Positions 10,140 to 60,000 of a stretch of 64,000 bases of DNA are shown here, one piece after another. Position numbers and translations under genes: made by a program. The notes beneath the pieces are model-generated. The model worked only from the letters and a program-made list of their open reading frames with translations. It searched no databases and was not told the DNA's origin. The stretch lies in the NCBI GenBank assembly GCA_947179485.1, contig OX359246.1, positions 6,820,001 to 6,884,000 of the forward strand, written 5' to 3'. The stretch comes from Allacma fusca. Lineage: Eukaryota > Arthropoda > Collembola > Symphypleona > Sminthuridae. Each line of letters opens with the position of its first letter. The stretch's first letter is position 1.

Positions 10140-10405
10140 TATAGAGCTACTTTTGGGATCGGGATACACCCGGGAATTGGGTTCGGGATCGGGAACGGGT
10201 TCGAGTTCGGGTGTCTAATTATTGTTCCCAAATACTTTGGGACCAGGTTCAGGAACATGCTCAGCAGACCCGGGATTTCGGGATCGGGACCGGGTTTGGG
10301 AACGGGTTCAAGCTTGATGAAGGTATTTGTGTTCCCGTCGGGAACCGGGAACATCTTCGTTCCCACACCCGTTACACGCTTCACGTTCCCGGGAACTACG
10401 CAACC
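10140..10405. repeat. Foldback-like word-repeat block, ends not identified
   Basis: Dense variants of gggatcggga, gggaacgggttc and their complements (gttcccgggaac) occur in both orientations, with a switch from one orientation towards the other inside the block. This is the same architecture as the hAT-like foldback elements at 18238, 45035 and 54661, but I could not find matching terminal inverted repeats or an 8-bp target duplication here, so the copy may be truncated. The glycine-rich open frames it creates are an effect of the repeat. Confidence 0.5.
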
Positions 10406-11536
10406 ATCTAGCGGAGAAAAAAATACAAAGCATGCACGGCTTCCCTCGTTAAAATGTTGAGATAATAATTTTACGTAAGCGACTTGAGCCGTTTCGCATA
10501 TTGTCAGTTGGGATCGCTAGTAGTGAAAATATGGAATACACTACTTAAAAGTATGGAAGTCAAATATTTACCCCCCTTTTTTTGGGCTGATGGGCGAAAT
10601 ATTTTATGGCCCCAGTCCATATGTACATGCATTTTTGTACATAGAGATAACTAACGTGCAGTTGGCTTGGGACTTGGCGACTCCATTTTTCACTTCTTGA
10701 TTCAATCGACTTTTTCCACTAATTTTCTCATCTTAGTAGCTCTGTTTGCATGTAAATCATTAATATCTTGTTGCAAATATCCACCTTCTACAAACTAGCA
10801 ATAGCACAAAATAACTTGCAATCCGAATCATTACAACTCTAATTTTTAAATTGTATTTAATGAAGTATCATGTATGTATCACAAACTCTTTATATAATTA
10901 ATGACAAATTCCAACATTATGAAGACTTTTTGTTAAAAATATCGTTAAATCCTAGTCTCCACTTCTATTTTGTTATTATACTCCTTGTCTGTGTTTATTC
11001 ATTGATTCATCTTAAAACATGTTTCACTAAAAGCATATATTTTAGCTACAGTCTTAAATGCATTTACTGTGTGTTGTAAGGTTAAAAGGGTTTTTATTAA
11101 CAATAAGTAATATGTATTCAGAAATACAAAAAAATACCGACACATGTTTCCAACGTACGGGCATGATAGCAAAAAAATCATCAAAATGGCTCAAATCTCA
11201 ACGCATCCAAATACTCGGTTCAATGGTTGCAGGTTCTGAAAATTTATCTGACGTTATATATAAAAAGTGTTGCAATAAGTACTTTCAATTCAATTTGCTT
11301 TTTCCTAATAAGAATCCCACGCTTAACTGTATAAAGTTCAGTCATTAAAATTCTCCTCTCCTCAAATTCGTCCGTGCTGTAACCGAACGTATTTTTTCTC
11401 ACTACCAGACTTAATTTAATCCAAATTTGATGATTTATGTCTAATGTTTATAATAATTATGATTAGCGTTTTTAAGTGATATTCTAAAATTGCTATTGCG
11501 AGCTTCCGATATGATGCAAGCAGTTGGTAAGTATAT

Positions 11537-11614
11537 GCCGAGAAGCACAGCGAGCTGAGCGAGCTGAAAAAGCTCTCCTCTGCGACAACGTTTCCGCCCG
11601 CTGTGCTTCTCGGC
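11537..11614. repeat. Perfect 16-bp inverted repeat with 46-nt loop
   Basis: gccgagaagcacagcg at 11537-11552 is the exact reverse complement of 11599-11614. The loop itself contains a smaller stem, gagctgaaaaagctc. Flanks on both sides carry tatat motifs and the phrase ctatatagtgaaat twice. It could be the core of a foldback or MITE, or a transcribed hairpin; there is no evidence to choose. Confidence 0.55.
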
Positions 11615-18237: not shown

Positions 18238-18943
18238 TAGTGCATCGCATGGGTTCAGGTCGCACCCGGGTATTTGGGTTCAGGTCCAGGTTCAGGTTCA
18301 GTATGGGTACATGTTTTTTGGACCCAATAATTTTGGGTCCTTTCTGGGTACAATATTTTATACCCGTTAAATTGGGTACAGGTTCAGGTTCAGGACCAGG
18401 TACAGAGAAAAACCTGTTCTGATTTTACCTGTCAGGACCAGGTGTAACACATGAAAGACCTGAACCTGATCACGAAAGACCTGAAATGTTTGGGTTCATT
18501 GAGTTAAAGTTAAAGGCCGGAGAATTCAAGCTTCCAAAATGATTTCCACCGCAAAAGCAATGGCAGGGTGTCCCAGGAACCAGTGACCTTGCATTCTTAT
18601 CCATTTTAAATATATTTTGTACTACAAATACCCAATTGTATTTTTAATACAAGATAAAATTAAAAAAAGATCGGATTCCCCTGAGATCCGGAAGTACCCA
18701 AGCATATTCAGGTCCGTTCCAAAAATACCCGGGTTCAGGTCGTCTTTTGGGTACTTTTTCGGGTTCAGGTACTAATCAGGTGCGGGTACTACAAAAACGC
18801 AATTGGGTCAGGTTCAGGATCGAAAAATTTGAACCTGTTAAATGGGTACATTTTCAGGTACAGGTTCACGCTTTTGAGGTACCCAAAGTTTGGGTCCAGG
18901 TTCAGGTCCAGGTTCGACTGTTTTGAACCCATGCGATGCACTA
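18238..18943. mobile_element. hAT-like foldback element, 706 bp, word ggttcagg
   Basis: Perfect terminal inverted repeat TAGTGCATCGCATGGG / CCCATGCGATGCACTA, bracketed by the 8-bp direct repeat tcacggat (18230-18237 and 18944-18951). Inside each end is an array of the words gggttcagg, ggtccagg and gggtac, in direct orientation on the left and again near the right end. The interior is non-coding; the short open frames over it are repeat effects. The 8-bp duplication and the (T/C)AGTG end point to the hAT superfamily. It shares its outer 15 bp with the element at 45035, although the arm words differ. Confidence 0.85.
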
Positions 18944-18951
18944 TCACGGAT

Positions 18952-22062: not shown

Positions 22063-22280
22063 CAGGGGTCGGATTTTTGTAGGAAGACGGGAAGATTCTT
22101 CCCAGGGAAAAAATAATATTTCTGGCAGGGAAAATCTCCGAACAGGGATTTTTAAAATCGTTGACCTTTTTTTTGGCAGGGATTTTTGAAATCGTTGAGG
22201 ACCTACCAGCAGGGAGTTAATAGTCAGCAGGGAAATTGGGAAATGATCTTCCAGGGAGATTTACAAAACTCCGACCCCTG
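22063..22280. mobile_element. Small hAT-like foldback element, 218 bp
   Basis: Ends CAGGGGTCGGATTTTTGT and ACAAAACTCCGACCCCTG pair at 17 of 18 positions. Flanking 8-mers are atttatac (22055-22062) and ctttatac (22281-22288), seven of eight identical. The body is built from repeats of cagggatttt and aaaatc. Non-coding. Confidence 0.65.
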
Positions 22281-22574: not shown

Positions 22575-22790
22575 TATTTTGGGGCAAATTGACACTATTT
22601 TGAGGCAAATTGCCTATTTTGTGGGGCATATTGACACTATTTGGGGACAAGTTGACACTTTTTTGGGGCAAGTTGACACTATTTTGGGGCAAGTTGACAC
22701 TATTTTGGGGCACATTGACACTATTTTGGGGCACATCCACACTATTTTGGGGCATATTAACACTATATTGGGGCATATTGACACTATTTT
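22575..22790. repeat. 21-bp minisatellite, about ten copies
   Basis: Tandem unit attttggggcaagttgacact with variants caaatt, cacatt, catatt. The unit length is a multiple of three, so all frames without a stop stay open: the minus strand reads a repeating NSVNLPQ peptide for over 100 codons and the plus strand reads TILGQVD. With no start context, splice signal or flanking homology I treat it as a repeat and not a gene. Confidence 0.85.
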
Positions 22791-22863
22791 GTTGCCAAGA
22801 AACCTCCAGTAGATTCCTAATAAATTCAAATTGGTAGAAAACTAATGTATGAATAGGATTCAA

Positions 22864-25500: not shown

Positions 25501-26805
25501 TTTTGTACGTCCGTGCTCTCATTATATAGTTTAGTTATAGTTACGAATCTCGAATGAATTCCTTGCAAATTAGATTATCACAGATAAAAAATTTATTCTA
25601 CCAGAAGATCCCCAGCATCAAGTGTTTATGTGCAATTACACTTGTTATTTTTAAATAAATACTAACAATAAATATAATAACCAAAGATTAGCACAATGTG
25701 GATCTTTTTCCCAGTAAAATCATTCAATAGTAGTTATTTGGAAATAATCCCGGGTTTTGTAATTCAAACAAATTCTCAGTAGTCAGTATTCCTAAAATAA
25801 AAATTGAGGAATGATACAGAAAATAATCGAGTGTAATCTTTAAACCTGATTCTCCCATTCCGTCGAACTGTGTTGTATTTTTTACAAAATCCTTCAAGTA
25901 AATAAGAAAACCAAACGGAATAAAAGTAATTCCTAAAACATTCCTGAATCCACACTACTAGTAGGCTGCAGTGCTGCGATCCGGTCAAGTAATTTTAAAA
26001 CTTGACCATGAACTTGACTTGACCACGAAACTTCAAGTAATTTTCAAGACACAACTTGAACTTGATAACTCGCGTTCGTGCAATTACTTGACTTGTCAAG
26101 TTCAAGTAATCAAGTAACTCATGTAAGACCCGAACTTGATCAAGTAGTGAATGTGGAAGGATGTGTCGTGAATGAGATGAAGGGAAGTTAATATCAAAAT
26201 CAATGACTCCTGGTCTGAGTGAATAAAAATGATGAAATGTAGAGGAAATAAAAATGTCTGTATTTGACTAGTTTCTACTTTGAAAACAAAACAAGGACGT
26301 AGACTTTATTTAAGAGGTGAGTTGGGCAGAGTAACTGCCTGAAAAGTGGAGGAGAAAAAGCTCTCCTAGTACAGTAATCATTTTCCTTTTATAGGATTAG
26401 TTTTGTAGCGTCCTGCTAAAATTAGAATAAATTACAACTAAATATAGGCTCCTTTGCATTATTGGGACAGGAAAAAGGTACCTCCATGAGGCCATTAAAC
26501 CTGTCCTTCTTTTGAGGTTTCTCATACATTCATATAACTCCATCCAAATACATATACATACATAGATACATACATTTGTCGGTCATGACCTCAGGTCATG
26601 TTAACATGAATGCACCAATTTGGCCTAAGCACCAAGAGACAAAATAATCTATTACATTAAACAATAATACAAGTAGGGTGATGTTGTGAATGTAAAATCA
26701 TAGGTGAGGTACTGTGGCAGTTGGCTGGGGCCATTCACAAGTTACAATGGTGCGTGGTCGGTTCAATACATACACAAATGGCATCATTTCAATTTAGCAT
26801 AACTT

Positions 26806-27085
26806 TTAAGCTATTTGGGCGAATTGGTCAATTTTACATCCTAACAGCATCTACTCATTACCGGCTACACGCTGGTAATGAGAAATCTCAACGATATTAT
26901 ATTGGTTCAAAAGTTATAAACAATTGATACAAAATGACTATTTCACCTTCCTTCCATAACTTCGGATTAGCCTAGCTTTTGAATTATTCGGGCAAATTCA
27001 TCATTTTTACATGCCAACAGCATCTACTCATTACCGGCTACACGCTGGTAATGAGAAACCTCTACGATAACATATTGGTTCAAAG
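26806..27085. repeat. Direct repeat with a conserved hairpin
   Basis: Two copies, about 26806-26913 and 26974-27085, share the phrase gcatctactcattaccggc continuing through acgctggtaatgagaaa, then ctc(a/t)acgata and atattggttcaaa. Each copy contains the perfect 9-bp stem ctcattacc/ggtaatgag with an 11-nt loop. It lies inside the foldback element. Confidence 0.7.
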
Positions 27086-27457
27086 TTGTGTCTAGAAATT
27101 ACCATAAGCTGGGATGAAAAAACATAAAATTCCTGAAAACTGAATATGAGTTACAACTTGTACATTTTCATAAGTAATACATTATTTTGCTTAAAAACAA
27201 GTACTCCTAAAGCAGCGTGAACAAGTAGTTAAAGTTCCAAACTTGACTTGAACTTGACTTGACCATGACTTGAACGCGACTTGAACTTGATAATTCAAGT
27301 TAAGTATCGCAAAAAATTAAACATGGCCACAATAAGTCGAACTTACATCAGCAAATTATTTCCTTCCGACTGAAAACCAAAACGCATTCAGAAAAGAATT
27401 TTACTACTACTTTTTATTTAAAACCATTCGAGGACAACTTTGAGCGTCTACTGAATA

Positions 27458-27607
27458 CAGTAAACGTTCGATATAAGGGACTATACATTTTATAAAGGAA
27501 TTTCCCTTATACAAAACGTCTAAAGCATTGCGTAAAAGAAAGTTGGGGTCAAACAAATGATATCAATATTTTCTTATAAGCTGAGCCCTTATAACGGACT
27601 TTCACTG
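27458..27607. mobile_element. pogo-like MITE, 150 bp, TA-flanked
   Basis: Ends CAGTAAACGTTCGATATAAG and CTTATAACGGACTTTCACTG are inverted complements with a few mismatches, flanked by TA at 27456-27457 and 27608-27609. Related in style to the 871- and 487-bp elements at 16847 and 50110 but not the same family. It is inserted within the foldback element at 25969-28313. Confidence 0.65.
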
Positions 27608-28405
27608 TAATTACGTCTGACGAGTTTTACATAGTGTCAAGTTTTATTTAATGTTCATATACGCATATATTCATATACCTATTTGAGCATTACGAATACT
27701 CTTTATTTAAAATTTAATAAACTAATATTTAATTATTTATTAAACGCTTTTTGTAAAGTCATCCAAGCTCATTTTATACTGGAATTTATTTACACAAGTT
27801 GAAACTAATAATTCTAAGCAACAATATGAATTATCAAGATAATTCTTTCATTTCATGGAGAGGCCGCTGCAACAACTAACAACGAACAACATTTGATAAA
27901 CAAGACCTTCATAAAACTGACTCTGATTTTGAATTTTGTCCTTTGATTTATGACATGTGCAAACAAAATACCCTAAACATACATGACATGAAATTGGATT
28001 GTAATTTTGAAATTGCTTCCGTCCTTTATGGCATGCGCAATCTAAAATTACTTGAACTTGACCATGAAATCTCAAGTTCATGGTCAAGTTTTTTCTTTCC
28101 ATTACTTGACCCTGAACTTGACTTGAGTTGCAAGTAAAACTTCCTTACTTGTACTTGAACCTGACTTGTCTTAGGATGTCATGGTCAAGCCGAGTACGTA
28201 CTTGAACTTGACCCAAAAGATTCAAGTAAAAAAATTGGCCTATACTTGAACTTGACCCGAACTTGAACTTGACTTGAAAACTCAAGTATTACTTGAACTT
28301 GTCCGCAGCACTGGACAGTAGGCTGGTCTCGAAAAGCACGCTCTATAATTAATAGGAGGGAAAACTATCGATCATGTTTTACAATTGTCACCAGGAAAAT
28401 TTGAA

Positions 28406-42440: not shown

Positions 42441-43721
42441 CAGGGACGGGAATTCGAATTCAAATCGGAATTAGAATCGGAATTATATTCAAAAAATTCG
42501 GGTATCCGAATCGATATTGGAATCGGAAAAAAATTCCTTAAGGTATTTGTATCCAAAATCGGATTCGAATAAAAACAAGAGTATTCCAATCGGTATTCGA
42601 ATATTTTTTTATGAATTCCGATTCCAATAAGGGATATGCCACAAATGACGTCACACATTTAGTCAGTCAGTCATATTGTCCGTGCATGATTTAACATGAC
42701 GTACACAGTCAGTCCCTTCTTCATAATGTGACGTCATTTTTCTACACCTATTTAACCCAGACCCTTTGTTACTGTTACACAAAATCCCGTGCGAATTCGT
42801 AAGTTTAAATAACAACTTCAGCTTCCAAAATCATTAGTACTATCCCTAAATCACAAAGCCACAAAGAGTTATATTTTTTTCGAATGTAAATTGTATCTGT
42901 TACATTATTATAAAATTATTGACCGAACGAGCGACCCACTTCAAATTAACTTTGATCTATAGGATTTTACCCATGAATTAGTACAAGTACCTGATGATTT
43001 TTGTTTTCCGCTTGTTCACAGTAGAAGTCATTGTTAATCTTCCACTTTTATTATGATTATTACCCATGACTAATAACGAAATCTCTACGATAAAAACGAG
43101 GTAAACAAAATAGGTTAATTGTTGCTAATTAATCATTTTTTCGCAAACGAGTGCAGTTTTGCATAATATAGCACCCTGTGGCATTACACTATACCCATGT
43201 ATACATACAAATATGACGTCATACACAGTCAGTCAGCTTTCGTTGTGACAACGAATGATCATCCAGTCAGTCAGTCGTAATTTGACAGATTTTTGGATGA
43301 CGTCATTTGTGGCACATCCCTAAAGTGTCGATTTCATTGGGTTTTATACTGCCACGTGCGAGAAAATGTTCATAGGAAGCATTTTTTAAAAGCCGCACAC
43401 ACAATATTATAAAATCCAAAGACAAAGTAACGAACGTTTGGCAAAGGAAAAGTATATATTTAACTTAGAAACGCTTAATGCGTTATGTATCGCTTATGTT
43501 TTTGCGATTAAATTGTTCCGTTGAATAAATTCCCATTTTTTATAAAAATATCCGAAAAGTATTTGAATCGGAATCCAAATTCCGGAAGTATTCAAATATA
43601 TTGGAATCCGTATCGGGATTCAAATTTTTAAGTATTAAAATAAGTAATTAAAATCGAAATCGAAATTAGAAAGTATTCGAATCCGAATTTAAATCCGTAT
43701 GTTTCCGATATCCCGTCCCTG
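42441..43721. mobile_element. hAT-like foldback element, 1281 bp, word ggaattcgaat
   Basis: Ends CAGGGACGGGAATTCG and CGATATCCCGTCCCTG are inverted complements except for two central bases, bracketed by the perfect 8-bp direct repeat gttcgacc (42433-42440 and 43722-43729). Arms consist of tcggaat, attcgaat, aatcggaatt and complements, in the left 190 bp and the right 170 bp. A 690-bp TAA-flanked MITE is inserted at 42631-43320. Without it the element is about 590 bp. Non-coding. Confidence 0.85.
42631..43320. mobile_element. PIF/Harbinger-like MITE, 690 bp, nested in a foldback element
   Basis: Ends GGGATATGCCACAAATGACG and its complement (one mismatch over about 23 bp) are flanked by TAA at 42628-42630 and 43321-43323. 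Subterminal agtcagtcagtca repeats occur near both ends in opposite orientation. The ends resemble the 223-bp element at 8401 in type and target site. It sits inside the left half of the foldback element, so it is the younger of the two. Confidence 0.8.
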
Positions 43722-44841: not shown

Positions 44842-45034
44842 AGAGTGAGCGGGAGATATATTAAAGGTTTTAATAATTAACAGGTGATTTTGAGAATGTT
44901 CTTGGGGTTTGCTCATAATCCGTATTATCCAACCCCTTCGATTACAGGAACCTGGATTACTGGATTTAATTTCATGGAAAAACTTTTGCAACGGTTGAAT
45001 GTCAGATGGAGTACATTATGATAAGTGTTCATCC

Positions 45035-45988
45035 CAGTGCATCGCATGGGTACAAAAATGCTGTACCTGGACCTGGACCCAAATAGTGGGTACCGGCAAA
45101 ACTCGTACCCAAACCCGTACCTGATTAAAAGTACCCATTAAACAAATGTTGGTACCTGGACATGATTATTTTGCAAATAGTGCGTACCTGTACCTGAATT
45201 TTACCCGTACCCAAAATTTACCCAATGTATGGACCTGTACCTGAAAATTTTTCCTACTTACCTGTACCCAATCAGGTACTTTATAAAGAATTACTGTAAA
45301 CGATTCCACGTGATGATTTAACATGATGACATTCAATGATTTACATCACAGCAATTACAAGCTGGAAAAAATTCTGCCTCGTCATAGTTTTTGCAATACT
45401 AGACATCTTAATGGAACTATAACTTCTATACCATTTGAGGTATTGCATCTTCAATTAAATCTTCCACTTCTAGGTCATCCTCCATAACCACAATATCATT
45501 TAACGTCATTTTTACTGAATCACAAGTGGAATTTGTAATTACACGTACTTATTGCTGGCGCGTTGTGATAAGTTGGTCAACCATCTCTATTGCATGTATG
45601 TTTCTTCAAAAATTACGATGCACTCCTGAAAACGCACTGAATATCAAAATAAACCTGTAGGTCGAAGAGAGAGCCACATACTACACTAGATGCGTCGTAA
45701 GATGAATTTCTGTTCGTAAAAGTACCCACATTATCAGGTATTAATTTGTCAGGTCCAGGTATATTGGAAGCTTGTACCTGTTCCTGTCAGGTACAAGCCA
45801 CAAAATCCCAAGTTTGTACCTGTACCCAACACCTGGCTTTGTACCCAAAATTTGGGTATTTATAGATAGTACCCATAAAGTTCCCATTCAGTTTGGGTAC
45901 TTAAACAGAGTACCCATTTCGGATCTGGACCTGTACCTGTACCTGTACCCAAATACTCAGGTACTACCCGTACCCATGCGATGCACTG
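45035..45988. mobile_element. hAT-like foldback element, 954 bp, word gtacctgtaccc
   Basis: Perfect terminal inverted repeat CAGTGCATCGCATGGGTAC / GTACCCATGCGATGCACTG, flanked by the perfect 8-bp direct repeat gttcatcc (45027-45034 and 45989-45996). Arms are arrays of gtacctg, cctgtaccc and gggtac. The homologous place in duplication unit 2 (53693-53700) has a single gttcatcc and no element, an empty site that proves the insertion and its exact limits. The outer 15 bp are shared with the element at 18238. Non-coding. Confidence 0.92.
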
Positions 45989-46748
45989 GTTCATCCAAGT
46001 AACCGTTACGACCCGTGTGTGGGTAATTTATAGGTTTAGGTAGAGGTTTACCAAATTTCTTGAACATTCTGACAAACGTTGTATGGAGTGCGTATAACTG
46101 GCCAATTTCGTGTAGTACTGAATATCGGAATAATATGGGAATTTAGATCAATAAAGGTAAATATTTGGTAACGGTAACACCTCTGCTCAATAATGGTCCA
46201 ACTTAAACCAAGGAAGCAATTCTGACCATAACGGGTACTCCCTGAGGGGGTCAAATTCTTTAATTTTAAATCCTATTTAAAATTTCAATGACTATGGTTT
46301 CGGATTGAAATTCCAAAATTTCGCCCCAACAATTAATGGGTCAGCCCAAGTTTGGAGCTGAACTAGAGTAACAGAGTTGGAACACAAAACTTTCGTAAAT
46401 CCCTCAAGGGACAGTTCAAGTGAACTGCTTGTTAATATTTTGTGTACACGTGAGGATCACTCCTCGTTATAATAAATGTACACATACATACATATATAAT
46501 TAATCATACGTATAATTACAAAATCTTCTAGAACATTTACTTCGAAACTTTAAAAGCTGACATCGTTTTTCATCAATCAAGCCTGTTTTCCTGGAACAGT
46601 TGACAGGGACGGCTTATTTAGGTCAATTAATAAAAACAATCACGTAAAACCGTATAGAATTAAGACAACGTTGCCTCCGTTCGAATTCAATTCCGCGTCG
46701 AATTACATTCCCACTGAATATATTACACTATGATGTTACCCAGTTACT

Positions 46749-47903
46749 ATGTTGACTCCTAACGATCTATACTTATATCTTCACTTTGTCAAAATAGCCT
46801 TAAAATTGTACTTGATACCATTTGAAATTCGTGTCAAAGGAGGAAAATGCTTTGAATTACGTCAAGGATGTAAATTACGTCGAACGATTTACACTTTTAT
46901 TTTCTCGTACGGAATTTTTCGAGTGGTTCTTAGCTTGTACTATTTGGTTTTAAAAATATTTAGCAATGAAAAATCGTATATTCTGGATGTGATTCTTCAT
47001 TCTGTGGTTACAATTTCGTTTTCATGCGCGGCACTGGTTCAAATTCAATCATTCTTTCTAAGGACGGATGCCACAGTTACAATATTTAATTTTATTTTCT
47101 CCGGGGAAAACTGGTCCTCCAAGTGGGACGGTAATAATATAATAATGGTAGGAATGTAGTTTAAGGATATTAGCCGATTTAAAAAAAACAACCAGTATAC
47201 AGGAAGTGTACATTGAGTTCTTGTACATTATCACAGTCTTCATATTTTTTATGAACTGACTTTTATTCTTTGAAAATACCCAAAATTCTCTTCGTCGACT
47301 TGTTCATTTAATAAGGTACATTATATTTGCCGAATATTAATTTTGCACTATTTTAAGATACGATTTCCTGGTACTAGAGACTCAATGTGTCTGCTATAAT
47401 CCACACAATTTCCGTATAGGGATCCCACAGCAGGCCCAGTCAACAGCGTGAAATACATCTCACTTTGTGTGATCACTCGGCTCATTACTCAGTTATTTAA
47501 TCAAGGGCACTTTTCAGAGATATACATATGTCTTCAAATTTGCTATGTTGTTCATATCCATCATGGGGGGCTATGCTGGGATTCGCACATTCTTTAAAAA
47601 TCCTGCTTCAGGTGTATTGCTCGTCACAGTGTCCATGTTTTCTAATGGGATTTTTGCTGCGGGTTTTGGGAACGCCTTTGCGATACCCGAATACATCGTA
47701 ATGATGAAAACGGAATTGGGACGACATTCAAAGTTGAGTTAAATTAACAGCAAGAAGGTAACTTGGTGTGAAAGGAGGATTGGATCCATTGACTCAGTTG
47801 GGACTAGAGCGGGTCCCTTCAGCACAATTGAAAGGATGTCAACCGCTGTGTTGTTTAATTTTTCAATTAATGGAATCTCCAGTCTTTTAATTGGTTCGTA
47901 CTG
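46749..47903 (+). pseudogene. Chemoreceptor-like pseudogene (unit 1, copy A)
   Basis: Exon 1 (46749-47130) is open and starts MLTPNDLYLYLHFVKIALKL, with hydrophobic segments RVVLSLYYLVLKIF and SVVTISFSCAALVQIQSFFL, ending at a phase-1 GTAATA donor. Compared with the copy at 54630-60429, about 380 bp are missing across intron 1 and the first two thirds of exon 2, what remains of exon 2 has an in-frame TGA, and exon 3 has an early TAA although it is otherwise well kept up to LLIGSY near 47903. So the gene cannot make a complete seven-pass receptor. Its exon 1 preserves the sequence into which the nested transposon went in the other copy. Confidence 0.8.
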
Positions 47904-49665
47904 AAAAACTGTATTCTCTTCATATTTGAAAGCCACTGATGGTTTTAATTATACGGCTAATGTTAATTTTTTATTGAAATATTTCTTGCCATCAACATAT
48001 ACATACACGCATTTGGCTATATACATGTATTGTATATAACAAGACTATATATTAAAATGTTAACATTTTCATGCGTAACCCAATTCTACGACATACATTG
48101 TTACATCATATCCATACATCTTAACCAAGTGAACAATAATTACTATTTCTACTCAGCTCCCCTTAATACACCATGTGTTATCTTCATCTGTTAACAATTG
48201 AATTTTCACGAAACATTTGTACTTTGCTTCAATTCCTTGACGATTTTACTGAACGTTTCATAGTTATAGCGTCCCTGCAAAAGGTTTGAAAAAGAAATTT
48301 GCTAAATCGTAGCTGAATGGACCTAACCTCATTATAGGGGAAACGGGGGTGGAAAACGCTAGTAATTCTAGGGGGCTGTTATAAAAGGATTGTCTTTACC
48401 TATTTATAAATTCATCTTTGCTCAATTGTTTTAAGTCAACACACATCTTTCCATGTCTCATGGAATTAGCTCACAGAAATTCATCGGCACTCTGTTTTGT
48501 ATGAAGGTGGTTCCACACTTTATGACCCACTTAAATTTATTTATTACTCAAGTAACCACTCATTGTAAAGTAGCAGAGTATTTCCTCGGAGCATTTTGGA
48601 ATTCGATTCCTATACCTGCGTTCAAGGTACGGATTTTTGTAAACTTGCCTATAATTTTCGAGTTTTCCCGCTGAGTCTGATCTCCTTTTTGGGAATTCCA
48701 AAACAAATTCCATTCTCTTTTTTCAATAAATATTTCTGCTTAAAAGGTCAATATTTTTGAAAATGCCTGTTGTCAAAACAAATTCCCCGAAAAGAATTTG
48801 AATCTTATGACACTATATAGGATACATGCTTTTTTAACAATTTTACTACACCAATTCTTATTCTGTATTTGTAATCATTACACTTGTACTTTGGTATAAG
48901 TACGGGAATCTTACGGGGGTTTTGTAAAAAGTAAAATCCACTAGATGTTCATCGATACAACAAATAGTAATGGGCAATACGTAATAAGGGCTGAAACACT
49001 GCCGTATTTATTAACATCTTTAATAAAAATTCCACTTAGAGCATAGACAGGCGTAGATATAATTACTTGATTGGGTTTATTTTGTCAATAATCTTTCAAT
49101 TTAGAATTTGTGGGCAGGGAACGCTCACGAACCTTACATTGCTAGAAAAAAATTATATTGGGAAGTAACAATATTCTCCCGTTAGGAATTTAGGATGTAT
49201 TTAGGTTATGTGTTTGTGGTAATGGAAAATGCTTTGATAGACAAGGGTCAAGGATTATAGGGTTAGATATTTGCCTATGGATGAAGTTTATAAAGAATTG
49301 AATGAATGCATAATTAAATTAAGGACTTGATTGGAATTTAGAAGTGGTATTAGGTAAGGCAAAGCAATTGGAATAAAGCTGCCGTGTTGGAAGTAGAATA
49401 TGAAATTAGATAACACTGAAACTTGAGTTGAGAGGTGAAATCTGTGCGTAAATCTAGCTTAGGGAACTATTTTGAAATTTGGATCATGATACCACAATTC
49501 TTTTTATTGGTCATATTATAAACATGAACAAAAAAGCAATCCATACGTCACAGGAAAAATTTTCAGCATCTACGATTAGAGCAACCACAAACCAGATCTA
49601 AAATAAATAATTGCCTTAACCTCAACCCCTGTTGAATGGACAGATAGTTGTATCAATACTTGAGA
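47904..49665. other. Spacer between receptor copies A and B
   Basis: Parts around 48890-49040 match 61940-62110 in unit 2. No gene called; the frame at 48453-48674 has no motif. Confidence 0.45.
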
Positions 49666-51500
49666 ATGTTGAGCTCCGTGGATCTCAAAATTTATCTCCA
49701 CTTGCTCCAAATTGCTTCAAAACTGTATTCAATACCATTTGACCTCTGTTTGAAAGATGGAGAGCGGGTTCAACTGCGGAGGGGAGAATTAAAAAGGAAA
49801 ATTATTTTTATTGGGATTTTTTTGTGCGCAACTCTCCGAATTGGTATTAGCTTGTATCTCCTGCTTCTGAAAATGCCCGTTTACAATAACACATCAGCTT
49901 ACGATATTGCAGTTCATATTGTTTACTCAGTAGGGAATGCGTCCGCCATTATGATTCAATTTCTGTCGAATTTTTCCACGGCTGATGTTACTGTAACAAT
50001 TTTTAACCTTCCCTTCGTCGGGGAAGAGTGGAGCCCGAAGTTACCAGGTAATTTGGAGTTTACTCCAAAGAAATTACAATTTGCAAATAACTGGCATGTC
50101 TGTTTATTACAGTGAATTTCCTATATAGTGGTTTCCAAGGGAGTGGCAAATTCCTGCCACTATATAGAGATGCCACTATATGGTATTAATGGCTAACTAT
50201 ATACTATTAATGTTTATAACTAATAACAGGCTAAATATATTTATAAAATAATTTATTTGTACAGAATGCGTAAAACTATGAGGTATGCAAAGGTCAGTAA
50301 GTTTAAAATATTCATTAAATAATTATATATACCCTCACACTGGTAATACTGTAAGTAGTAGCAAACTTTTCAACTGCAACCTTACTTACCTAGCTAATTT
50401 TATGCCAACTGCCATTATAATTTTGCATGGCCGAGCCACCGTAACACATAATGGTGCCATTATAGAGGGAATACCATTATAGCGGGTGCCACTATATAGT
50501 ATACCTTTAACATTGCAAACCTCTAGGGAGGGTTTTTTGATGCCACTAAAGAGGAAATGCCATCTAAGAGGAAACCACTATATGGGAAATTCACTGTATA
50601 GTTCAATTGTTTGTATTAACAGGATTTGGACGCCTGTTTCAACCCAGTAAGAAGTACACGGTTCGAGAAAAATGTATAGTTGTATTACCAGGCCTCATTG
50701 TTTTTGCTTGTATATTTGTGGGCATTCTCATGACTACGTTCTGCAAAGACGGGCATCTGTTTCAGTTACTTCCGAATTCCTGGCAAAATCCAGGCACATT
50801 TACGCTTCTGTCGCTTGTAGAACTGTATGTTGTCTGGTTGAATGGGATCGCGTCTGTGCTGTTTCTCCTGAACTGCATTTTATTTTTTGAAAATGCTCAG
50901 AAGACTTTGAAGAAGGAAATTGATTCCTTAAGGTAAGATTTATGATCGAATCCATTACAGATAATTGTAGTTATGTGGGTTTTAAAGGTTTTTATTTCTT
51001 GAAAAACGATACGTCCCTTAATTAGGAACCTAGACTCAAGGAATTTGGATGTGGAGCAATGTATTTCACAATGCGTGAGGCATCAGCTACTTATTCAAGT
51101 ATTTAACGAGGGGTACAGTAGATTGACGTATGTGCTCAAAGTTGCCTTATTGTGCATATCAGTGACGCTGAGCTTTGCGGGCGTGAGAACAATTCCGGAT
51201 AATCCAGGATTTGGTGCGGCCCTGATTTTGTTGTCGTTGGTAACGCATTCCTCATATATTCTGTTCTTTGGGAACGCCTTTTGCTTACCGGAATATATGA
51301 TGACGATAAAGAGGGAATTGCTTCGACTGCTCAAGCCTGGTAAAATGTATGGACGGGAAATTCTCTGGCTGGAAAAACGAGTGGTTGGCATTGCCCCAAT
51401 CGGAATCGAAATTGGACAATTCCACAAAGCTGAAAGGGAATCCACGCCTTTATTTTTAGATTTTTCAGTGAGAGCCACCACATCTCTGTTAATTGTCTGA
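49666..51500 (+). CDS. Seven-transmembrane chemoreceptor-like protein, 388 aa, three exons (copy B, intact)
   Basis: Exons 49666-50047, 50623-50932 and 51026-51500, in phases 1 and 2; the 1167 nt close to 388 codons plus TGA. I chose the ATG at 49666 (MLSSVDLKIYLHLLQIASKL) because it aligns with the starts of the sister copies; the longer frame upstream opens only with TTG. Hydrophobic segments: FIGIFLCATLRIGISLYLLL and VHIVYSVGNASAIMIQFL in exon 1; VLPGLIVFACIFVGILMTTF and LNGIASVLFLLNCILFF in exon 2; LKVALLCISVTLSFAGV and LILLSLVTHSSYILFFGN in exon 3, ending TPLFLDFSVRATTSLLIV. Most likely a gustatory-receptor-like channel of sensory neurons. Intron 1 consists almost wholly of a 487-bp pogo-like element. 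It is the only complete receptor in the plus-strand cluster. Confidence 0.75.
50110..50596. mobile_element. pogo/Tc1-like TA-flanked element, 487 bp (copy 2), in receptor intron 1
   Basis: Ends CAGTGAATTTCCTATATAGT and complement, flanked by TA at 50108-50109 and 50597-50598. It matches the outer parts of the 871-bp copy at 16847-17717 closely but lacks about 380 bp of the interior. It occupies 487 of the 575 bases of intron 1 of the intact receptor, leaving the donor and acceptor untouched. Confidence 0.8.
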
Positions 51501-51860
51501 TAATTACAAAGTTATTGGTACTTTCTGTCTTAGTAATTACGTATGTGTTAAATGAGACATACATTTGCTGAAATACAAGTATCTGTTATATAGACATCCA
51601 TGATGTGGCAAAACTTGACTGCATTCATTGTGACAAATAAGTGTCGAGGGGATTTATGGTATCATGTAGCATTATTAATATACACTTCCGTGTAGCGCAA
51701 GAAGTTTTTACATACTTGTGTCTACAATTAAATTAATCTTAATGTAAACTGTAACATTTATTTACCTACCTTGTTTTACTTTGTAGTCCACTTTTTGAAA
51801 CCATCTTCATCTTGCTTGTTTTAAAAGACCAGTTTCACATCAATACAGCTAGTAAACATA

Positions 51861-52265
51861 CCGTAAAAACCCCAAAGATGGCCCCCGCCAACTTCCAAAC
51901 ATTAACCTAAACCCAGGCTATCTTTAGAGGCCCGGCTACCTTTAGGGGCCGGCCATCTCTACTAAATATAAAAGAGTAAATTACAAAATATGATTTGTTT
52001 TATGAAAAAATGTTTTTTAATATTTAGTTCTATTCCAGAATACTGATTGTAGCATAATGCGGATTCAGATGAATAGTCCAGATTGTCCGTAGAGTAAATA
52101 ACAACTTCAAAATTTAAACTGCATATATAGAAAAAAAACTATTGCATAAAAAACCAGGCCATCTTTGGGGGCCCTGCTATCTTTAGAGGCCGGCTATCTC
52201 TATATAAGTATGGGGTAAAACCCAGGCCATCTTTAGGGTCCCGGCCATGTTTAGGGTTTTTACGG
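51861..52265. mobile_element. TA-flanked MITE, 405 bp, word ggccatctttagg
   Basis: Ends CCGTAAAAACCCCAAAGATG and CATGTTTAGGGTTTTTACGG are inverted complements at 18 of 20 positions, flanked by TA at 51859-51860 and 52266-52267. Subterminal arrays of ccaggccatctttag and ggccggctatctc. The homologous spot in unit 2 (about 62334-62345) reads straight across acatgtgattgagacagcc with no element, an empty site. Confidence 0.75.
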
Positions 52266-52545
52266 TATGATTGTGACAGCCGAGCATCCTCAGGTAAGCA
52301 TTTACAACAACCCGCTCACAAAACTTGTATGGTTGTGCTACAACATGGATCCGTTGGAGTCGTGCAAAGACCACTTCACCCCTGGGTGACTTACTACAAC
52401 TGTTGTGCTGTATCCAGGGATGATTTTGAATTCAGTTTTTAATGCTTCTTTCAAACTCTTTAATGAGCAAAAATACAGGTCTACTAACTGGTCGATCTTA
52501 TAAGGAGAGCTCATGTCTCTGGATTAAGACAATACAATCATGAGG

Positions 52546-53511
52546 TAGTGCTGTAATATTCAACTCGTTTAGTTTGTACTTTTGTGTTGTTTTTTTCTGT
52601 AGTACAAAACAATATCCGTTTTCGAGGTACAAAACTAAAACAAAAACAATATGGGAATTTAAAAAAACAATGCAATTCCAATTGTATTGTTCCAAGGTTC
52701 TAGAAGACGCTAGAAATTCACTAAAGTGATTGTTGTCATAGAGTTCTAGAGTACACAGGGTTGGATCTGTGTAGTTAGAATCGTGAAAAAGTCGCAATAA
52801 ATGGGCATTGACTAATTATTGCTAAATTTACCTAACATCGCCGGTATAAAACATGCACCTACATTGGGCCGGTTAACGGTCATTACGGTGTCATGCGACT
52901 ATGAATACGCCAATAAAGTCAACCACAGGTGATTTACTACTAGTGACTCAGGCCAATTTGCAGGCCTGTAACATAATTTCCTAGCCGTTCAGGAACGCAT
53001 TATACTTACCAGTAATAAGTTAACTATTTCCCGTGTACACTTTTGTCACTCAATGATGTATATAAATGGGCTTGTGCTAGCAAAGCTTAATACTTCCAAG
53101 CTGCGTTCTGCAAGCTGTATTACACTTTATCATCCCCTTGCTAAGCTCCGTATTACACAAAAAATATTATGTATTCCTGTGTTAAGATCTGGAATGACCT
53201 ACCATCTGAACTCAGACTGTAAATTAAATTGTACTTTTCTTTTTATTCTAACCAAACGTCTTCTTGCAAATCGTAACTCAGATAATACACTTACGTATCT
53301 AATTTTGTCTATTATTCCTACATTTGGTAAACTGACAGCCTACTCTTGATAGTATATGTGAAATTTTTTGACTCTGTAGTGTCTGGAATGATAACCAATA
53401 CATGTATTGATCTCTTTGACAATGAAATAAATACCATAATAACAATAATTTAATTCAATTGAACCATGCATGTAGTTGATTATTCCTGGTATCATCTGTC
53501 ATTTCATCAGA
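52546..53511. other. Unique spacer between the two duplication units
   Basis: No gene, repeat end or RNA recognised. A 98-codon open frame at 53053-53349 has no motif. Confidence 0.4.
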
Positions 53512-56178
53512 GTGAGCGGGAGATATATTAAAAGTTTTAATAAATAACAGATAACATAGATAATGTTGTTATGGTTTGCTCAATATCTGAAAGTGCAACC
53601 CCTTTGATTACAGGAACCTGGACTTCTGGATTTAATTTAATGAAGCAACTTTTGTAACGACTGGATGTCGGATGGCGTACGTTATGAGTATGGTTCATCC
53701 AAGTAACGGTTACTACCCGTGTGTGCGTAGTTGTGCAATTGTAACACCAGGAAACGGTAGGATATGACGACTTGGTTTGATGTGGTATACTAGCATTTCA
53801 CCTGAACTATGCCTAGGGATTTACCAAAGTGCAACAACTCGTCGGCTTCATGGGTTTTGCATCTCTGCTATTACAGTTCGCTTGTACACTCGGAATGACA
53901 CCTTTACTTTTGTGCGTCATGCCATATTTGAAAAGTATAAATGGCATTTAACATTTAAAACTGGATTTCCATAAATGAATGGATATACTAAAGTTCTTAA
54001 CATCTGCATTAGGTGTAATGATAATTAGTCAGGAATGAATAATGTCCAATTCCAATACGGTCTGGAGTGGGGTATCTTGATAGGTACCCCTACGGAGGTC
54101 AAATTCTGTAATGTTAAATCCTTAAATCCCATTTAAAATTTGAATAATTCTTATAGATTGGGAATAAAAATTCAAAATTCCACCCAATAAATTAAGACGT
54201 CTACCCAAGTTTGAAGCGGAACTGGAGTAACAGAGTTGGTCAAAATCACGAAGACCACGAGTGGGAACATAAGTTCAGTAAATCCGTAGGGGACAGTTCA
54301 AGTGAAATGCTTGTTAGTGTTTTGTGTACCTGTGAGGATCACTGCTCGTTGTAATAAATGTACACAGGTATAACATATACGTATAATTACCAAATGCTCT
54401 ACTACGCTTACGTCGAAAATTACAAAGCTGACACTACTTTTCATTAATCAAACCTGTTTTCCTAGAGAAGTTGACAGGGATGGCTTATTTAGGTCAATTA
54501 AGAAAAGCAATCTAGAAAAACCGTACAGAATTAAGTAAACGTTGTAAACTATCTCTTCAGTTCGAATTCAACTCGGCGTCGAATTTCATTCCTACTGAAT
54601 AGATTGCACTCCACTGTTACCAAATTACTATGTTGACTGCTACAGAACTGCACTTATACCTAAAGGTCTTCACGGATCGGATTCTGGTCTCATCCGTATC
54701 CGATCCTATCCGATCCGGTAAATTCCGGATTTCAAAAACACCCATCCTATCCGATCCGAAAGAGTCGGATACCATTTTATAAGTATCCGTATCCGATCCG
54801 GAATGTTCGGATCGGATAAAATTTTCGGTCCGGTCCGTCGGATACATTTACGGATGCATCCGATTCGATCCGCGGATATCCGAACGTTACTTCAAGAAAC
54901 CGTAAAAAAGATATATCTTATATATTGAGCATGTTTCTAATTTTATCACATTCAAATCAATATGAAAATTTTTAAATCCCGGTGTATCGATAATTACCTC
55001 GTTAGATGCAAAACCAATTTTGCTTCCAAAAAACTGAAAACAAATAGATTATGCATTCAATATAATTGACACGGCTTTCCTTGATTCTTTTGTCTTGAAT
55101 ATTTTTCCACCAACTCTTTAAGTTCATGTTGGAAATAAGTACTAAAAAAATAATTAAAAATGTAACAACAAATTCACGAAGAATTTGAACAGTTGATGCC
55201 GGGTACGTTGCATGCGTGTATGGAGGACGAGAATTCTCATGAATGCATTAAAGTTTCAAATTAGAGGTGGGATTCGGGCTTGACTTCAGGCCCGAACCCG
55301 GAAGAAACCCGAACAAATACTCAATTAGCCCGACCCCGCCGGCCAACGGGCTAAATATTCGATATTCAACGTTTTATGCACTTCACATTTTGTAAAACTC
55401 GAACCCGTTAAAAACCCGGTCTCCAAAATATTTTACAACCCGAACCCGCTAAAAACCTGATCTTTAAATAGTTTTAAAACCCGATGAAAATCCGGCTTTT
55501 TAATAACAATTGAATGCGCTGTGAAACCTTTATTTACATATTCTATTTTATTTGCATATACTGTCCATCCCAGTGCTCGGACTGGGTACAGAAACCGTGT
55601 ACCCGTACCCATACTCGTACCCGAATATCGGGTACTACAAAATGCTGTACCTATACCCGTACCCATACCCGAGTACCCGGGTAAATAATTTCGGTACCCG
55701 TACCCGTACCTGAAAATACAATGTAGTACCTGTACCCACAATTTACCCGTACCCGTAATGTACCCAAAACCTGTACCCGTACCCGAGTATCTATTGTGTG
55801 TACCCGGGTATTACTCGGGTACTGGAAGTTTGGCCGATTTAAAATCCCCGAAGACATTATACTGCCCAGCTGAAAAATTTTAATTTGTCAATTTTTTGAC
55901 CTCCACGTGCCCGGGATTTTGGGAATTTTCCCTAGGCGTTAAAGACATCCTATTTGAATTTTTTGAAAAAATTATTTAAGGCATTTTGTGTTTTTTTAAT
56001 AAACACTGACGAAATTCAAATCCTACTACCCCAAAATAATAACTTGCTGAATGAAATGAAATGTGTTCTCGCTAATTGGAATTGGGACGGATTCTTTAAT
56101 ACTAAACTCTCCATAACTTGCTTTTCAACTTGGAGAACAAGAAACCATTTTTTTTTCGGATAATCGAACTCTGTGTAT

Positions 56179-57054
56179 TAGGGTTGGTCATACCGATATA
56201 ACGATACGATATTATCGTTAATATCGTCCAATTTGGAGGAACGATATGCTACGATAATTCTCGTATATTTCACACGATATATCGGGCTATCTTAATATCG
56301 TTCTAAGAAGGTAGGATCGTCAAAAATTGCATACTGTGGTCATCTGACGTATTTCGTGCCCTAGAAAGTGTCATCTGAACCGGAAGGAGTGGTCAAAACC
56401 GTTCAATTCAGTTCAGTAAAAATTAATTCATTTCATTTCATTTCAGTCAAATTTTTGAATTTAACTGAATCGAAAACAACGGTTTCCGCATGTTAACTTA
56501 AAGAATACGCTTTCTAGACACGAAAGCAGTATTTTCCAAGCGCACAACAGAAGGAAGTTAAACTAAGGGTACAGATCGTTACTTTTAGGATCTGGACAGC
56601 TTGTAAACGATAAATCTGTTGCTGAAATTTTTGGGGCAGAATGAATCGTTTGAACTTTCAAGGAAAACGATTCAATTTAATTCAATGTTATGAACTGAAT
56701 CAATCGATTCAGTTTCATCTTGAATTAAATCGAAAAATTAGTGAATTGAATTGAACTGAACCGAAAATTTCCAATTCAGAATTGGATTAGTCCGAGCACT
56801 AGAAGGAATGGTTAAACAGATATTTGGAAAAATGAATAAGTGAAATTGAAGCATTATTTCGGCTTATTTATATTGCTTATGTAACTTTTAATAAATTAAA
56901 TACTTATTGAATACTTTTACTGCTTAATTTCATTATTATTTCAATTTATATTGTATATCGTTTTTATCGTTCTACCATATCGTTATCGGGATTATTTTTG
57001 TGAACGATAACGATATTAACGATATTTCGAAAGGTAACGATATGACCAACCCTA
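56179..57054. mobile_element. Nest layer 4: hAT-like foldback element, word aacgatat
   Basis: Ends TAGGGTTGGTCATA and TATGACCAACCCTA are perfect inverted complements, flanked by ctgtgtat (56171-56178) and ctgtttat (57055-57062), seven of eight identical. Arms repeat aacgatat, atatcgtt and gttatcg. Inserted into layer 3. One mismatch in the target copies suggests that it is not very recent. Confidence 0.82.
56391..56801. mobile_element. Nest layer 5 (candidate): word gaattgaattgaa
   Basis: Inside layer 4 there is a block rich in gaattgaa, attcaattc and tgaatcgatt. Its right end, gtccgagcacta, resembles the hAT terminus of layer 3, and is followed by gaaggaat (56802-56809) against gaaggagt (56383-56390) on the left. 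The left end does not show the matching terminal repeat, so this layer is only probable. Confidence 0.4.
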
Positions 57055-60000
57055 CTGTTTATAGAAAATGTTATACGGAAAAATTGAGTTGATCATAATT
57101 TTTCCAAGTCAAATATTGCGGTTTCAGGAAATAAATGTGGGAGGCAATATTGGATATTCATTTTATATTACAGCTTTATAAAACAAACATTCGTAAACTG
57201 TCTTTCACATTTATGAAGCCCGAGACGGAGATTTTCAAAAAATGCAGGCAAAATAGGACTAAAATGCAACCCCATGGAAGTTTTGAACGCCAAGTTCAGA
57301 TGTCTGTCAAGTTCTTTTAACATCAAAATTATCAAGATTAATCAAAGGGACTGAAATATAAATATTGCGTGCAAGGAACGATATTTTTCATTCTAAAATG
57401 CTATAAGTATTCACCTCAATAAATACTCAAAGTGTCATAAATACCCAGAATTGAAAATGCTCAAATTACCTGCATAAAATGCCTTGGCGTTTTCAAATGG
57501 GCAACCCTGGGTACTTGTAACGTTAAGAAATGGATCTGCTAATACATGTATATTTATTCCGATCTTATCTCGTAATACGTCTTCAAATAATTGTAATGTT
57601 ACGCTCCCAATGAAGCTAATTAAATTGAATCCCAAGAACCTCCCTCTTGAAATTCTTCGTTGATGTGCTTCACTATTTAAGTCGATAAACAGATGATTTC
57701 ACTGACTCTACGCTCTATTTCTTTATTAGATTCCTTGGATAAGTTATTAGAAGCGTTAGATTGCAACTACCACGTAATCATAAATGAGACGAAGCCACTT
57801 GGCTCTGTCACTAACGCAAGTATCTGTATACTACGAAATAAGCAACTCCACGGTTGGTAGGTCTTATTGCTAGCCATAGCCAACCATTCCATCAGCAATC
57901 CTTGAAGTACCCAAAAATACTCGGGTACAGCACCCACGGGTACAGGCATTTTACACAGTGATACCCGTACCCATTGGGTACTACCCGATTGCCACTGAGT
58001 GAGTACCCATACCCATACCCTTACCTGTACCCACTTTATTGCCTAAAATCAAGAGTACCCGGGTAGTACCCGCGTACTTGCGAGTACGCAACTTCTGTAC
58101 CCGGTAGTACCCACACCTGTACCCGTACCCATTTACCCGAGTATTACCCGTACCCAGTCCGAGCACTGGTCCATCCCAATAAACGTGCACACACGGAGCA
58201 AAACTTAGCTCTGAAATTTTTTGAAGATAAACTATCAAACTTAAGGGATCGTTTCAAAATGTTTAAGCATGTGTACGTAGTAAATACAGTGAACCATTAT
58301 TTAGCTTTGGCATGAATATCCATGAAAGCAATGCTTGAACTCTGCGCAACGTCAAATATGCATGCCACCTATCCGTCCTAAATCATATTCTAGTAGAATT
58401 TGTAATTTGTGACCCGCCCGAAACCCGAACTGAAAAATAAATGCAGGCCCAAGCCCGATCTTAACCCGGCTTCATTGTTTTAGTGCAGCCCGAACCCGGT
58501 CGGAGCCCGACGTAAGTTCGTATTTGCAGCCCGAACCCGGCTAAAAACCCGGCCGGGTCGGGTTCGGGCCGGCCCGAATCTAATAGCCCGCTTCCTGGCC
58601 TCACCTCTATTTCAAATCCAAGAATCTCTCTACTATAAAATGCGTGACAATATGATAGCATTATTCCTCACGAGAGGGCTCGTCTAAAAGACGGATATCC
58701 GCCGGATCATCCGAAAACACAGAACATGCTCATCCTATCCGGTCGGATGCATTCATTACTGCATCAAATCCTATCCGAAATAAATACACGGATTCAAATG
58801 ATGCATCCGGTCCGCCATATGTTTGACGGATAGGATTAATTGTGTTTTCAATCCTATCCGAATCCGATCCGATCCGAATCCGCCCGGATCAATCCGATCC
58901 GATGAAGACCTTTACTTATACCTTCACTTGGTCAAAATAGCATCAAAATTGTACTTGATACCATTTAAACTTCATTTGAAAAATGAAGTTGAATTACGCG
59001 AAGGATCTAAAATACGTCGAACGATTTACACTAGGGTTTTCTCGTACGGATTTTTTCGAGTGGTTCTTAGCTTATACTATTTGGTTTTAAAAATATTTAG
59101 CAATGAAAAACCGTATATTCTGGATGTGGCTCTTCATTCCGTCGCAACAATTGCGTTTTCGTGCGTGGTACTGGTTCAAATTCAATCCTTCTCTTTAAGG
59201 ACGGATGTTACAGTTACAATATTTAACTTTGTTTTCTCCGGGGAAAATTGGTCCTCCAAGTGGGATGATAATAATGGTAGGAACGTAGTTTCTGATTTTA
59301 GCTAATTTAACAACAAGTGTGTGGGAAGTTTATCGGGGTTCACTAAAACATTCGTTGTGACGGCTCTCCTCAATAATAGTAAAACTCAAAGCTAGCGAGT
59401 AGGAAAGCGATCCGGGTTATCCTAATCAGTTATTTGTTGGTGTAGTTCTTTAGCATATTATAGCAAGTTATTATACAGAGATTTATGTATATCTTAATGG
59501 AAATACGCTCTGTATGATTAACAAAGCAAGGCCCGATTTCCCAGGCAAACAAGAAGTACTCAATGCGAGAAAGGTTCACCATTCTGTTACCATACGCAGT
59601 TGTCATCGTTTCTCCTCCGTTGGAGTTACTCCTGGCAATATTTTGTACACAGTTTCACTTGTACCAGTTGCTCAACAAATCCTTGCAAAACCCCATCACA
59701 TTTACTATACTTTTTGTACAGGAAGTCTACGTCGAATTCTTCTATATGATCACGAGCTTCATATTTTTTATGAACTGCCTTTTATTCTTTAAAAATATTC
59801 AAAGATCCCTTCGTCAAGGGGTTGGTTTAATAAGGTAAATTTATATACATATGCTGAATATTAATAATTATACCGTTTTAAGAAAGGAGTTCCTGATACT
59901 AGAGATTCGAGTTTTCTGTTATAATGTATTCATAGGATTTCCGTATAGAGCACCCACACCAGGTCCAGTCACCAGCGTGGAATGCATCTCACTTTGTGTG

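What the first reader, a model, noticed from the sequence alone, without database searches (positions are those of the whole stretch)
10140..58914. A class of hAT-like foldback elements whose arms are arrays of family-specific near-palindromic words
At least eight elements (18238, 22063, 25969, 42441, 45035, 54661, 55262, 55571, 56179) share short inverted ends of hAT type, 8-bp duplications in most cases, and arms made of one short word repeated with variation: ggttcagg; cagggatttt; aacttgac; ggaattcgaat; gtacctgtaccc; tccgatccg; cccgaacccg; ccgtacccg; aacgatat. The words differ between families but are always short, partly self-complementary and occur in both orientations. hAT transposases are known to bind repeated subterminal motifs (for example in Ac/Ds), so each word could be the binding site of a different transposase, expanded into an array. 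I do not know of a description of this combination.
Basis: partly seen in the sequence, partly recalled or inferred. Interest (0 to 1): 0.88.

Follow-up and report, generated by a model that had tools for sequence, protein, structure and literature searches.

The report
hAT transposons with hexamer-array ends
This stretch of an animal genome carries at least eight gene-less jumping elements of the hAT type, four of them nested inside one another, whose ends are dense arrays of a short word that differs between families and most likely serves as the landing site of the enzyme that moves them, as in the classic maize Ac/Ds system.

Summary
The elements are real. A scan blind to the tip finds six with perfect duplications, all YARNG. 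The ninth, 25969, has inverted ends but a displaced duplication. Two insertions have empty sites in duplicated flanking DNA. Four elements are nested: 54661 > 55262 > 55571 > 56179.

Two descriptions fail. The arms are not fold-back: beyond the terminal repeats both arms mostly carry the word in the same orientation. The words are not generally near-palindromic. Most are 5-6-bp units, 143 of 158 within 250 bp of an end. Two elements of one TIR family share both arms, but not interiors.

This is the published architecture of Ac/Ds and Kat1 ends, so the binding-site reading is likely but the kind is known. New, and moderately supported: words of eight of ten arrays link by one-base steps, suggesting a drifting recognition code. 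None of 58 element ORFs matched a transposase. No genome or eukaryote collection was available.

The parts
18238..18943 (-). non-autonomous hAT element, TIR TAGTGCATCGCATGGGTTCA, TSD TCACGGAT, hexamer class AACCTG (reverse orientation relative to 45035)
22063..22280 (.). 218-bp hAT MITE, TIR CAGGGGTCGGA, TSD ATTTATAC/CTTTATAC; seven CAGGGA all in one orientation, no 5-6-bp period
25969..28313 (+). hAT-like element, TIR CAGTGCTGCG, hexamer class AACTTG at both ends plus a central cluster; right GTAGGCTG copy displaced 4 bp
42441..43721 (+). hAT element, TIR CAGGGACGGGA, TSD GTTCGACC, hexamer class AATCGG; holds an inner inverted pair 42630-43321
45035..45988 (+). hAT element, TIR CAGTGCATCGCATGGGTAC, TSD GTTCATCC, hexamer class TACCTG; empty site in the duplicated copy within 53580-53830
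54661..58914 (+). outermost nested hAT element, own DNA 54661-55261 and 58610-58914, TIR TAAAGGTCTTCA, TSD CTTATACC, hexamer class AATCCG; empty site in the duplicated copy within 46670-46870
55262..58609 (+). second nested hAT element, own DNA 55262-55570 and 58169-58609, TIR TAGAGGTG, TSD TTTCAAAT, hexamer class AACCCG
55571..58168 (+). third nested hAT element, own DNA 55571-56178 and 57055-58168, TIR CAGTGCTCGGACTGGGTAC, TSD GTCCATCC, hexamer class TACCCG
56179..57054 (.). innermost nested hAT element, TIR TAGGGTTGGTCATA, TSD CTGTGTAT/CTGTTTAT, hexamer class AACGAT, no polarity
10140..10420 (.). word array GGGAAC/GGGATC/GGGTTC with 6-bp period, no element ends found

Best explanation
These are several families of non-autonomous (Ds-like or MITE-like) hAT transposons. 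Shown: hAT-type tips, 8-bp target duplications, two empty sites, no recognisable transposase coding in the elements, and a family-specific word, mostly a 5-6-bp unit, packed mainly within about 250 bp of both ends and mostly in one polarity. Inferred: each word is the binding site of the BED/N-terminal DNA-binding domain of the hAT transposase that mobilises the family in trans. Multimeric transposase would load on many weak sites at the ends, synapse the TIRs and cut and paste the element; interiors are replaceable filler. Repeated insertion of such elements into one another built the four-layer nest at 54661-58914.
For: Eight elements scoring 27-32 against a shuffle maximum of 26; six perfect-TSD hits, all YARNG, in a scan blind to the tip, against 4 in 20 shuffles together. 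T at TSD position 2 in 7 of 8, compared with nTnnnnAn in PMC10368747. Empty sites for 2 of 8 elements. Words within 250 bp of an end in 143 of 158, about 71 if spread evenly by the fractions printed, against required ends of about 100-200 bp for Tol2, Tag1 and Ac (PMC10368747, Introduction). First hexamer of the dominant class 12-32 bp from the tip at 16 of 16 ends of eight elements. 18238 and 45035 share each arm beyond the TIR: scores 68 and 70, against maxima of 48 and 49 when 12-bp blocks are shuffled so that words stay intact. Left against right arm stays within those nulls. The interiors score 18 v a shuffled mean of 19.6. Precedents: Ac AAACGG, Kat1 AATTCA, Herves motif, hAT binding domains.
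Against: No autonomous partner or binding data. A at TSD position 7 in only 4 of 8. 22063 has no 5-6-bp period; 25969 has a central word cluster, only 29 of 40 words near ends, and no adjacent TSD. The test of arm sharing rests on one pair of elements. Kat1's repeats differ in polarity between ends (PMC4763223), whereas here polarity is mostly the same. In Hermes, mutating putative inner BED sites of the left end did not much reduce activity and the right end binds no BED domain (PMC10368747), so long arrays need not be required. The scan favours hAT by design, though one search did not.
Confidence: 0.75

Rival explanations
1. The elements are hAT MITEs, but the arrays are passenger minisatellites born by slippage, with no role in transposition.
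For: Short near-tandem units, variation between copies, central cluster in 25969, an array without ends at 10140, and mostly the same polarity in both arms, as expected if one array seeded both.
Against: Words lie near both ends with mostly free interiors in seven of eight elements tested, 25969 being mixed; arms but not interiors are shared in the one testable pair; of 14 strong segments only 10051-10500 lies outside elements, and the 22575-22791 minisatellite accounts for another.
Confidence: 0.17
2. True foldback elements: long inverted arms that pair with each other and drive rearrangement.
For: Words occur in both orientations; the inverted alignment of inner arms exceeds the shuffle maximum in 5 of 9 elements.
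Against: Direct alignment beats inverted in 9 of 9; perfect TIRs are only 8-20 bp; word coverage has the same majority strand in both arms in 7 of 8 elements, 56179 being balanced.
Confidence: 0.03
3. A non-hAT superfamily that also makes 8-bp duplications moves them (P, Merlin or Zisupton; their duplication length is recalled, from no call).
For: TSD length alone does not separate them; no transposase was recognised in 58 element ORFs and 10 other window ORFs.
Against: All nine tips fit YARNG, and six came with perfect TSDs from a scan that did not ask for it (that YARNG is the hAT tip motif is recalled); TSD position-2 T in 7 of 8.
Confidence: 0.05

Closest known systems
maize Ac/Ds (hAT), especially Ds2 and Ds-l4
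   Same: short TIR, 8-bp TSD, hexamer repeats within the terminal 200 bp bound cooperatively by the transposase, filler interiors (PMC3260210, passages read)
   Different: here arrays have a pooled register of about 6 bp, each family has its own word, and polarity is mostly the same at both ends; no autonomous element known. Whether Ac repeats share one polarity was not checked
Kat1 element of the MATa locus of Kluyveromyces (hAT)
   Same: a hexamer (AATTCA/TGAATT) repeated between the TIRs, BED-type transposase (PMC4763223, passages read)
   Different: its repeats differ in polarity between the two ends; six exact copies, 12 with one mismatch
Hermes and Herves (insect hAT)
   Same: 8-bp target pattern nTnnnnAn (Hermes), subterminal motifs close to the TIR bound by the transposase (PMC10368747, Introduction and Discussion part 1; PMC3143072, passages)
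   Different: Hermes uses few left-end sites in fixed phase and has unlike ends; no dense array was described in the parts read
hAT-derived CGG-binding proteins (zf-BED plus Hermes DNA-binding domain)
   Same: most have their own short motif, often with CGG, and the four hAT-encoded ones match the subterminal regions of their own hAT (PMC8097297, passages); 5 of 16 arms (54661 both, 55262 both, 55571 left) exceed dinucleotide shuffles in CGG/CCG by more than 2 sd
   Different: they are proteins; no protein matching these words is known here; the other 11 of 16 arms are not CGG-rich by that measure

Membership tests
hAT superfamily, non-autonomous | 8-bp target site duplication | tested here: met
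   six perfect and two with one mismatch of nine elements; 25969 has none directly adjacent
hAT superfamily, non-autonomous | short TIR beginning YARNG (motif recalled) | tested here: met
   nine of nine; six of them perfect-TSD hits of a scan blind to the motif
hAT superfamily, non-autonomous | target pattern nTnnnnAn | tested here: inconclusive
   T at position 2 in 7 of 8, A at position 7 in 4 of 8
hAT superfamily, non-autonomous | mobilised by a hAT transposase sharing the ends | not testable with these tools
   no genome held; no hAT or BED family among 58 element ORFs of 55 aa or more and 10 other window ORFs
Ac/Ds-type end organisation | many copies of one short motif within about 200 bp of both ends | tested here: met
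   143 of 158 words within 250 bp in eight elements; 22063 too short to test; 25969 only 29 of 40
Ac/Ds-type end organisation | motif bound by the transposase | not testable with these tools
   needs the protein
Foldback (FB/Galileo-like) elements | long inverted arms able to pair | tested here: not met
   perfect TIRs 8-20 bp; inner arms more alike in direct than inverted orientation in 9 of 9

The most novel reading that the evidence does not exclude
The words form one drifting recognition code. Read as cyclic hexamer classes, AACTTG, AACCTG, TACCTG, TACCCG, AACCCG, AATCCG, AATCGG and AACGGG (8 of 10 arrays) are connected by single-base steps, and two elements with the same 16-bp TIR core and collinear arms differ in their dominant class, AACCTG against TACCTG. 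This would mean whole arrays are converted in concert as the transposase DNA-binding domain changes specificity, so that one genome preserves a ladder of BED-domain specificities readable from element ends.
Probability: 0.28. Interest if true: 0.7.

Novelty: new member of a known kind. Interest (0 to 1): 0.42.

Why it matters
If the arrays are binding sites, the ends of non-autonomous hAT elements let one read the DNA specificity of their transposases from sequence alone, and the range of words within one genome would show how a BED-type recognition domain changes specificity while its sites change in concert. It also gives a rule for annotating such elements: short YARNG ends, an 8-bp duplication, and a 5-6-bp word array confined mainly to the outer 250 bp, which repeat finders may split into unrelated simple repeats.

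Tried and rejected
Foldback pairing of arms and near-palindromic words were tested and rejected. Generic satellite: mostly rejected, but 10140 and the 21-bp minisatellite at 22575-22791 remain arrays without matching ends. Viral-contig scans for two TIR patterns gave 11 and 1 exact hits; none of the 12 had an opposite end in its locus or more words nearby than expected, so I take them as chance. Pfam on all 58 ORFs of 55 aa or more lying within 150 bp of the six outer elements (listed) gave no match at its curated cut-off; eight weak ones, the best Emr1 at E 0.0003, are read as chance (E limit 1, 0.1 in the others). Ten of the larger ORFs elsewhere gave TPR, EB and BTB matches and two weak ones outside the TPR protein, no hAT. 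Ends for the array at 10140 and for the stretch left of the solitary tip at 56789-56801 were looked for and not found.

Polarity by single 6-mers is significant at 0.05 in only 4 of 9 elements (22063, 25969, 55262, 55571); the alignment and coverage tests carry the claim. The one-base network was noticed after seeing the words. Its null (letters shuffled within each word) gives, for component size, P 0.0035 with all ten arrays, 0.015 without 18238 and 0.024 with only the eight TIR-bearing arrays, one per TIR family; for the number of links P is 0.012, 0.080 and 0.091. The mean distance test gives 0.003, and 0.028 without 18238. Nesting of depth four or more is rare if all DNA is open to insertion (0.00085 of 20,000 runs), but not if only a tenth is (0.09), so no strong claim is made. 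The TSD-length control gave 2, 6, 0 and 3 hits at 7, 8, 9 and 10 bp; the three at 10 were not examined. The genome-contig scan was not used.

Full report
What the window is. No whole genome is held for it. It is AT-rich (36% GC from the base counts) and holds a TPR coding stretch, an EB-module protein and repeated exon-like ORFs, with duplicated blocks at about 45-52 kb and 53-63 kb. I take it for an arthropod, perhaps a springtail; this is recall-based and untested. Folsomia candida has 37.5% GC (PMC5490193, passages).

The elements. A scan for exact 8-bp inverted ends next to exact 8-bp direct repeats gave six hits, against 4 in 20 dinucleotide shuffles together. Allowing one TSD mismatch gave 18 hits in all, against 2-11 per shuffle, so most of the 12 additional ones are noise. 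A second scan with YARNG tips, 16-bp ends and TSD scoring gave exactly eight elements with scores 27-32; the best score in 30 shuffles was 26: 18238, 22063, 42441, 45035, 54661, 55262, 55571, 56179. The ninth, 25969-28313, has CAGTGCTGCG ends; its flanking GTAGGCTG repeat lies directly left and 4 bp away on the right. T stands at TSD position 2 in 7 of 8 and A at position 7 in 4 of 8.

Insertion is shown directly for two. The joined flanks of 54661 match the duplicated copy within 46670-46870 (single octamer CTTATATC there, one base from the TSD CTTATACC), and those of 45035 match 53580-53830 (single GTTCATCC), without the element. Four elements are nested, each with its own TSD: 54661 holds 55262, which holds 55571, which holds 56179. 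Insertion order follows, outermost first. In a simulation of nine random insertions, depth four or more came up in 0.00085, 0.018 and 0.091 of runs when all, a quarter or a tenth of the other DNA was open to insertion.

The words. Enrichment is strong in all nine elements. Using the most enriched non-palindromic 6-mer of each, 143 of 158 occurrences in eight elements (all but 22063, which is too short) lie within 250 bp of an end of the element's own DNA, against about 71 for an even spread; the 15 misses are 11 in 25969, 2 in 55571 and one each in 45035 and 56179. At 16 of 16 ends of the same eight, the first hexamer of the dominant class starts 12-32 bp from the tip. In autocorrelation, the 16 arms pooled peak at lag 6 (8.0 sd above background), with lesser peaks at 5, 11-12 and 17. 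Singly, 54661 has a 5-bp register, 55262 mainly 5 and 11, 56179 no clear one, and 22063 none at 5-6. Six-base palindromes are not enriched in any of nine elements.

Polarity. With tips removed, arms align better directly than inverted in 9 of 9; the direct score exceeds all 200 shuffles in 8 of 9, the inverted one in 5 of 9. Bases covered by the word class have the same majority strand in both arms in 7 of 8 elements, weakly in the left arms of 18238, 25969 and 54661, and are balanced in 56179. By single 6-mers the strand bias reaches 0.05 in 4 of 9. So these are not foldback elements, though the words are found in both orientations.

Shared ends, unlike interiors. 18238 and the reverse complement of 45035 match left arm to left arm (68) and right arm to right arm (70) beyond the TIR. 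With 12-bp blocks of one arm shuffled, which keeps words intact, the maxima of 300 are 48 and 49; with 20-bp blocks, 0 and 1 of 300 reach the observed score. Left against right arm on the same strand scores 40 and 35, reached by 14 and 25 of 300 at 12 bp, and against the reverse complement 22 and 29, also within the nulls. The interiors score 18 against a shuffled mean of 19.6. Two distinct ends with replaceable filler is how Ds-like elements look. This rests on one pair.

No transposase. All 58 ORFs of 55 aa or more within 150 bp of the six outer elements, up to 125 aa long, were scanned with Pfam; none reached a curated cut-off and none resembled hAT or BED.

Comparison. Ac has an 11-bp TIR, an 8-bp TSD and hexamers within the terminal 200 bp that bind its transposase (PMC3260210, passages). 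Kat1's element repeats AATTCA, with polarity differing between ends (PMC4763223, passages). Hermes uses BED domains on subterminal sites of its left end, and Tol2, Tag1 and Ac need about 100-200 bp of their ends (PMC10368747, Introduction and part 1 of the Discussion). Herves binds CG/AATTCAT (PMC3143072, passages). hAT-derived DNA-binding domains show diverse motifs, often with CGG, and those of four hAT proteins match the subterminal regions of their own hAT (PMC8097297, passages). In CGG/CCG, 5 of 16 arms exceed dinucleotide shuffles by more than 2 sd (both of 54661 and 55262, and the left of 55571). Tol2's repetitive subterminal sequence is known to me here from a title in reference lists and a mention in PMC10368747. 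Nine literature searches (listings only, apart from the papers named and PMC2872659, passages) showed no title or abstract about this set of families. That is weak evidence of absence, since most subscription papers are not held.

The bolder reading. Taking hexamers as cyclic classes, the dominant words of ten arrays (the nine elements and 10140) give eight one-base links and a connected group of eight; with letters shuffled within words the means are 3.1 and 3.0, with P 0.012 and 0.0035. Without 18238, or with only the eight TIR-bearing arrays, one per TIR family, component size stays at P 0.015 and 0.024, but the number of links does not stay below 0.05 (0.080, 0.091). The test was devised after seeing the words. 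Still, 18238 and 45035 share a 16-bp TIR core after the first base and collinear arms, yet their arrays are dominated by AACCTG (73 against 24 for the TACCTG class) and TACCTG (64 against 9), counted as 6-mers in the outer 250 bp at each end. That is what concerted change of a recognition word would look like.

Verdict. Real, well supported, mostly explained by an established architecture, with a testable but unproven idea about how recognition words diverge.

Noticed in passing
42630-43321: Inner inverted pair AGGGAT[A/G]TGCCACAAATGACGTCA (23 of 24) inside element 42441 with TGACGTCA and CAGTCAGT words, but no flanking 8-bp duplication seen.
   Followed up: partly
56360-56810: Solitary tip TAGTGCTCGGACT (minus strand, 56789-56801), the same as the tip of 55571 apart from its first base, next to a stretch with eight AATTCA or its complement, inside element 56179; no left end found.
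   Followed up: partly
45027-45034 and 55563-55570: The targets of 45035 and 55571 are alike over the TSD and 18 bp to the right (17 of 26; random mean 7, sd 2.3; best of 28 pairs), which may mean a longer target preference.
   Followed up: partly
22575-22791: 21-bp minisatellite (about ten copies, TATTTTGGGGCAAATTGACAC) near but outside element 22063.
   Followed up: no
26782-27084: Two copies of a 130-bp repeat at 173-bp spacing inside element 25969, each with the inverted motif CTCATTACC...GGTAATGAG.
   Followed up: no
44830-62615: Duplicated blocks (pieces 71-91% alike) that supply the two empty sites; some ORFs look like chemoreceptor genes by recall only.
   Followed up: partly
25961-25968 and 28314-28325: GTAGGCTG flanks element 25969, directly on the left but after an extra GACA on the right, perhaps a footprint or a later insertion.
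   Followed up: no
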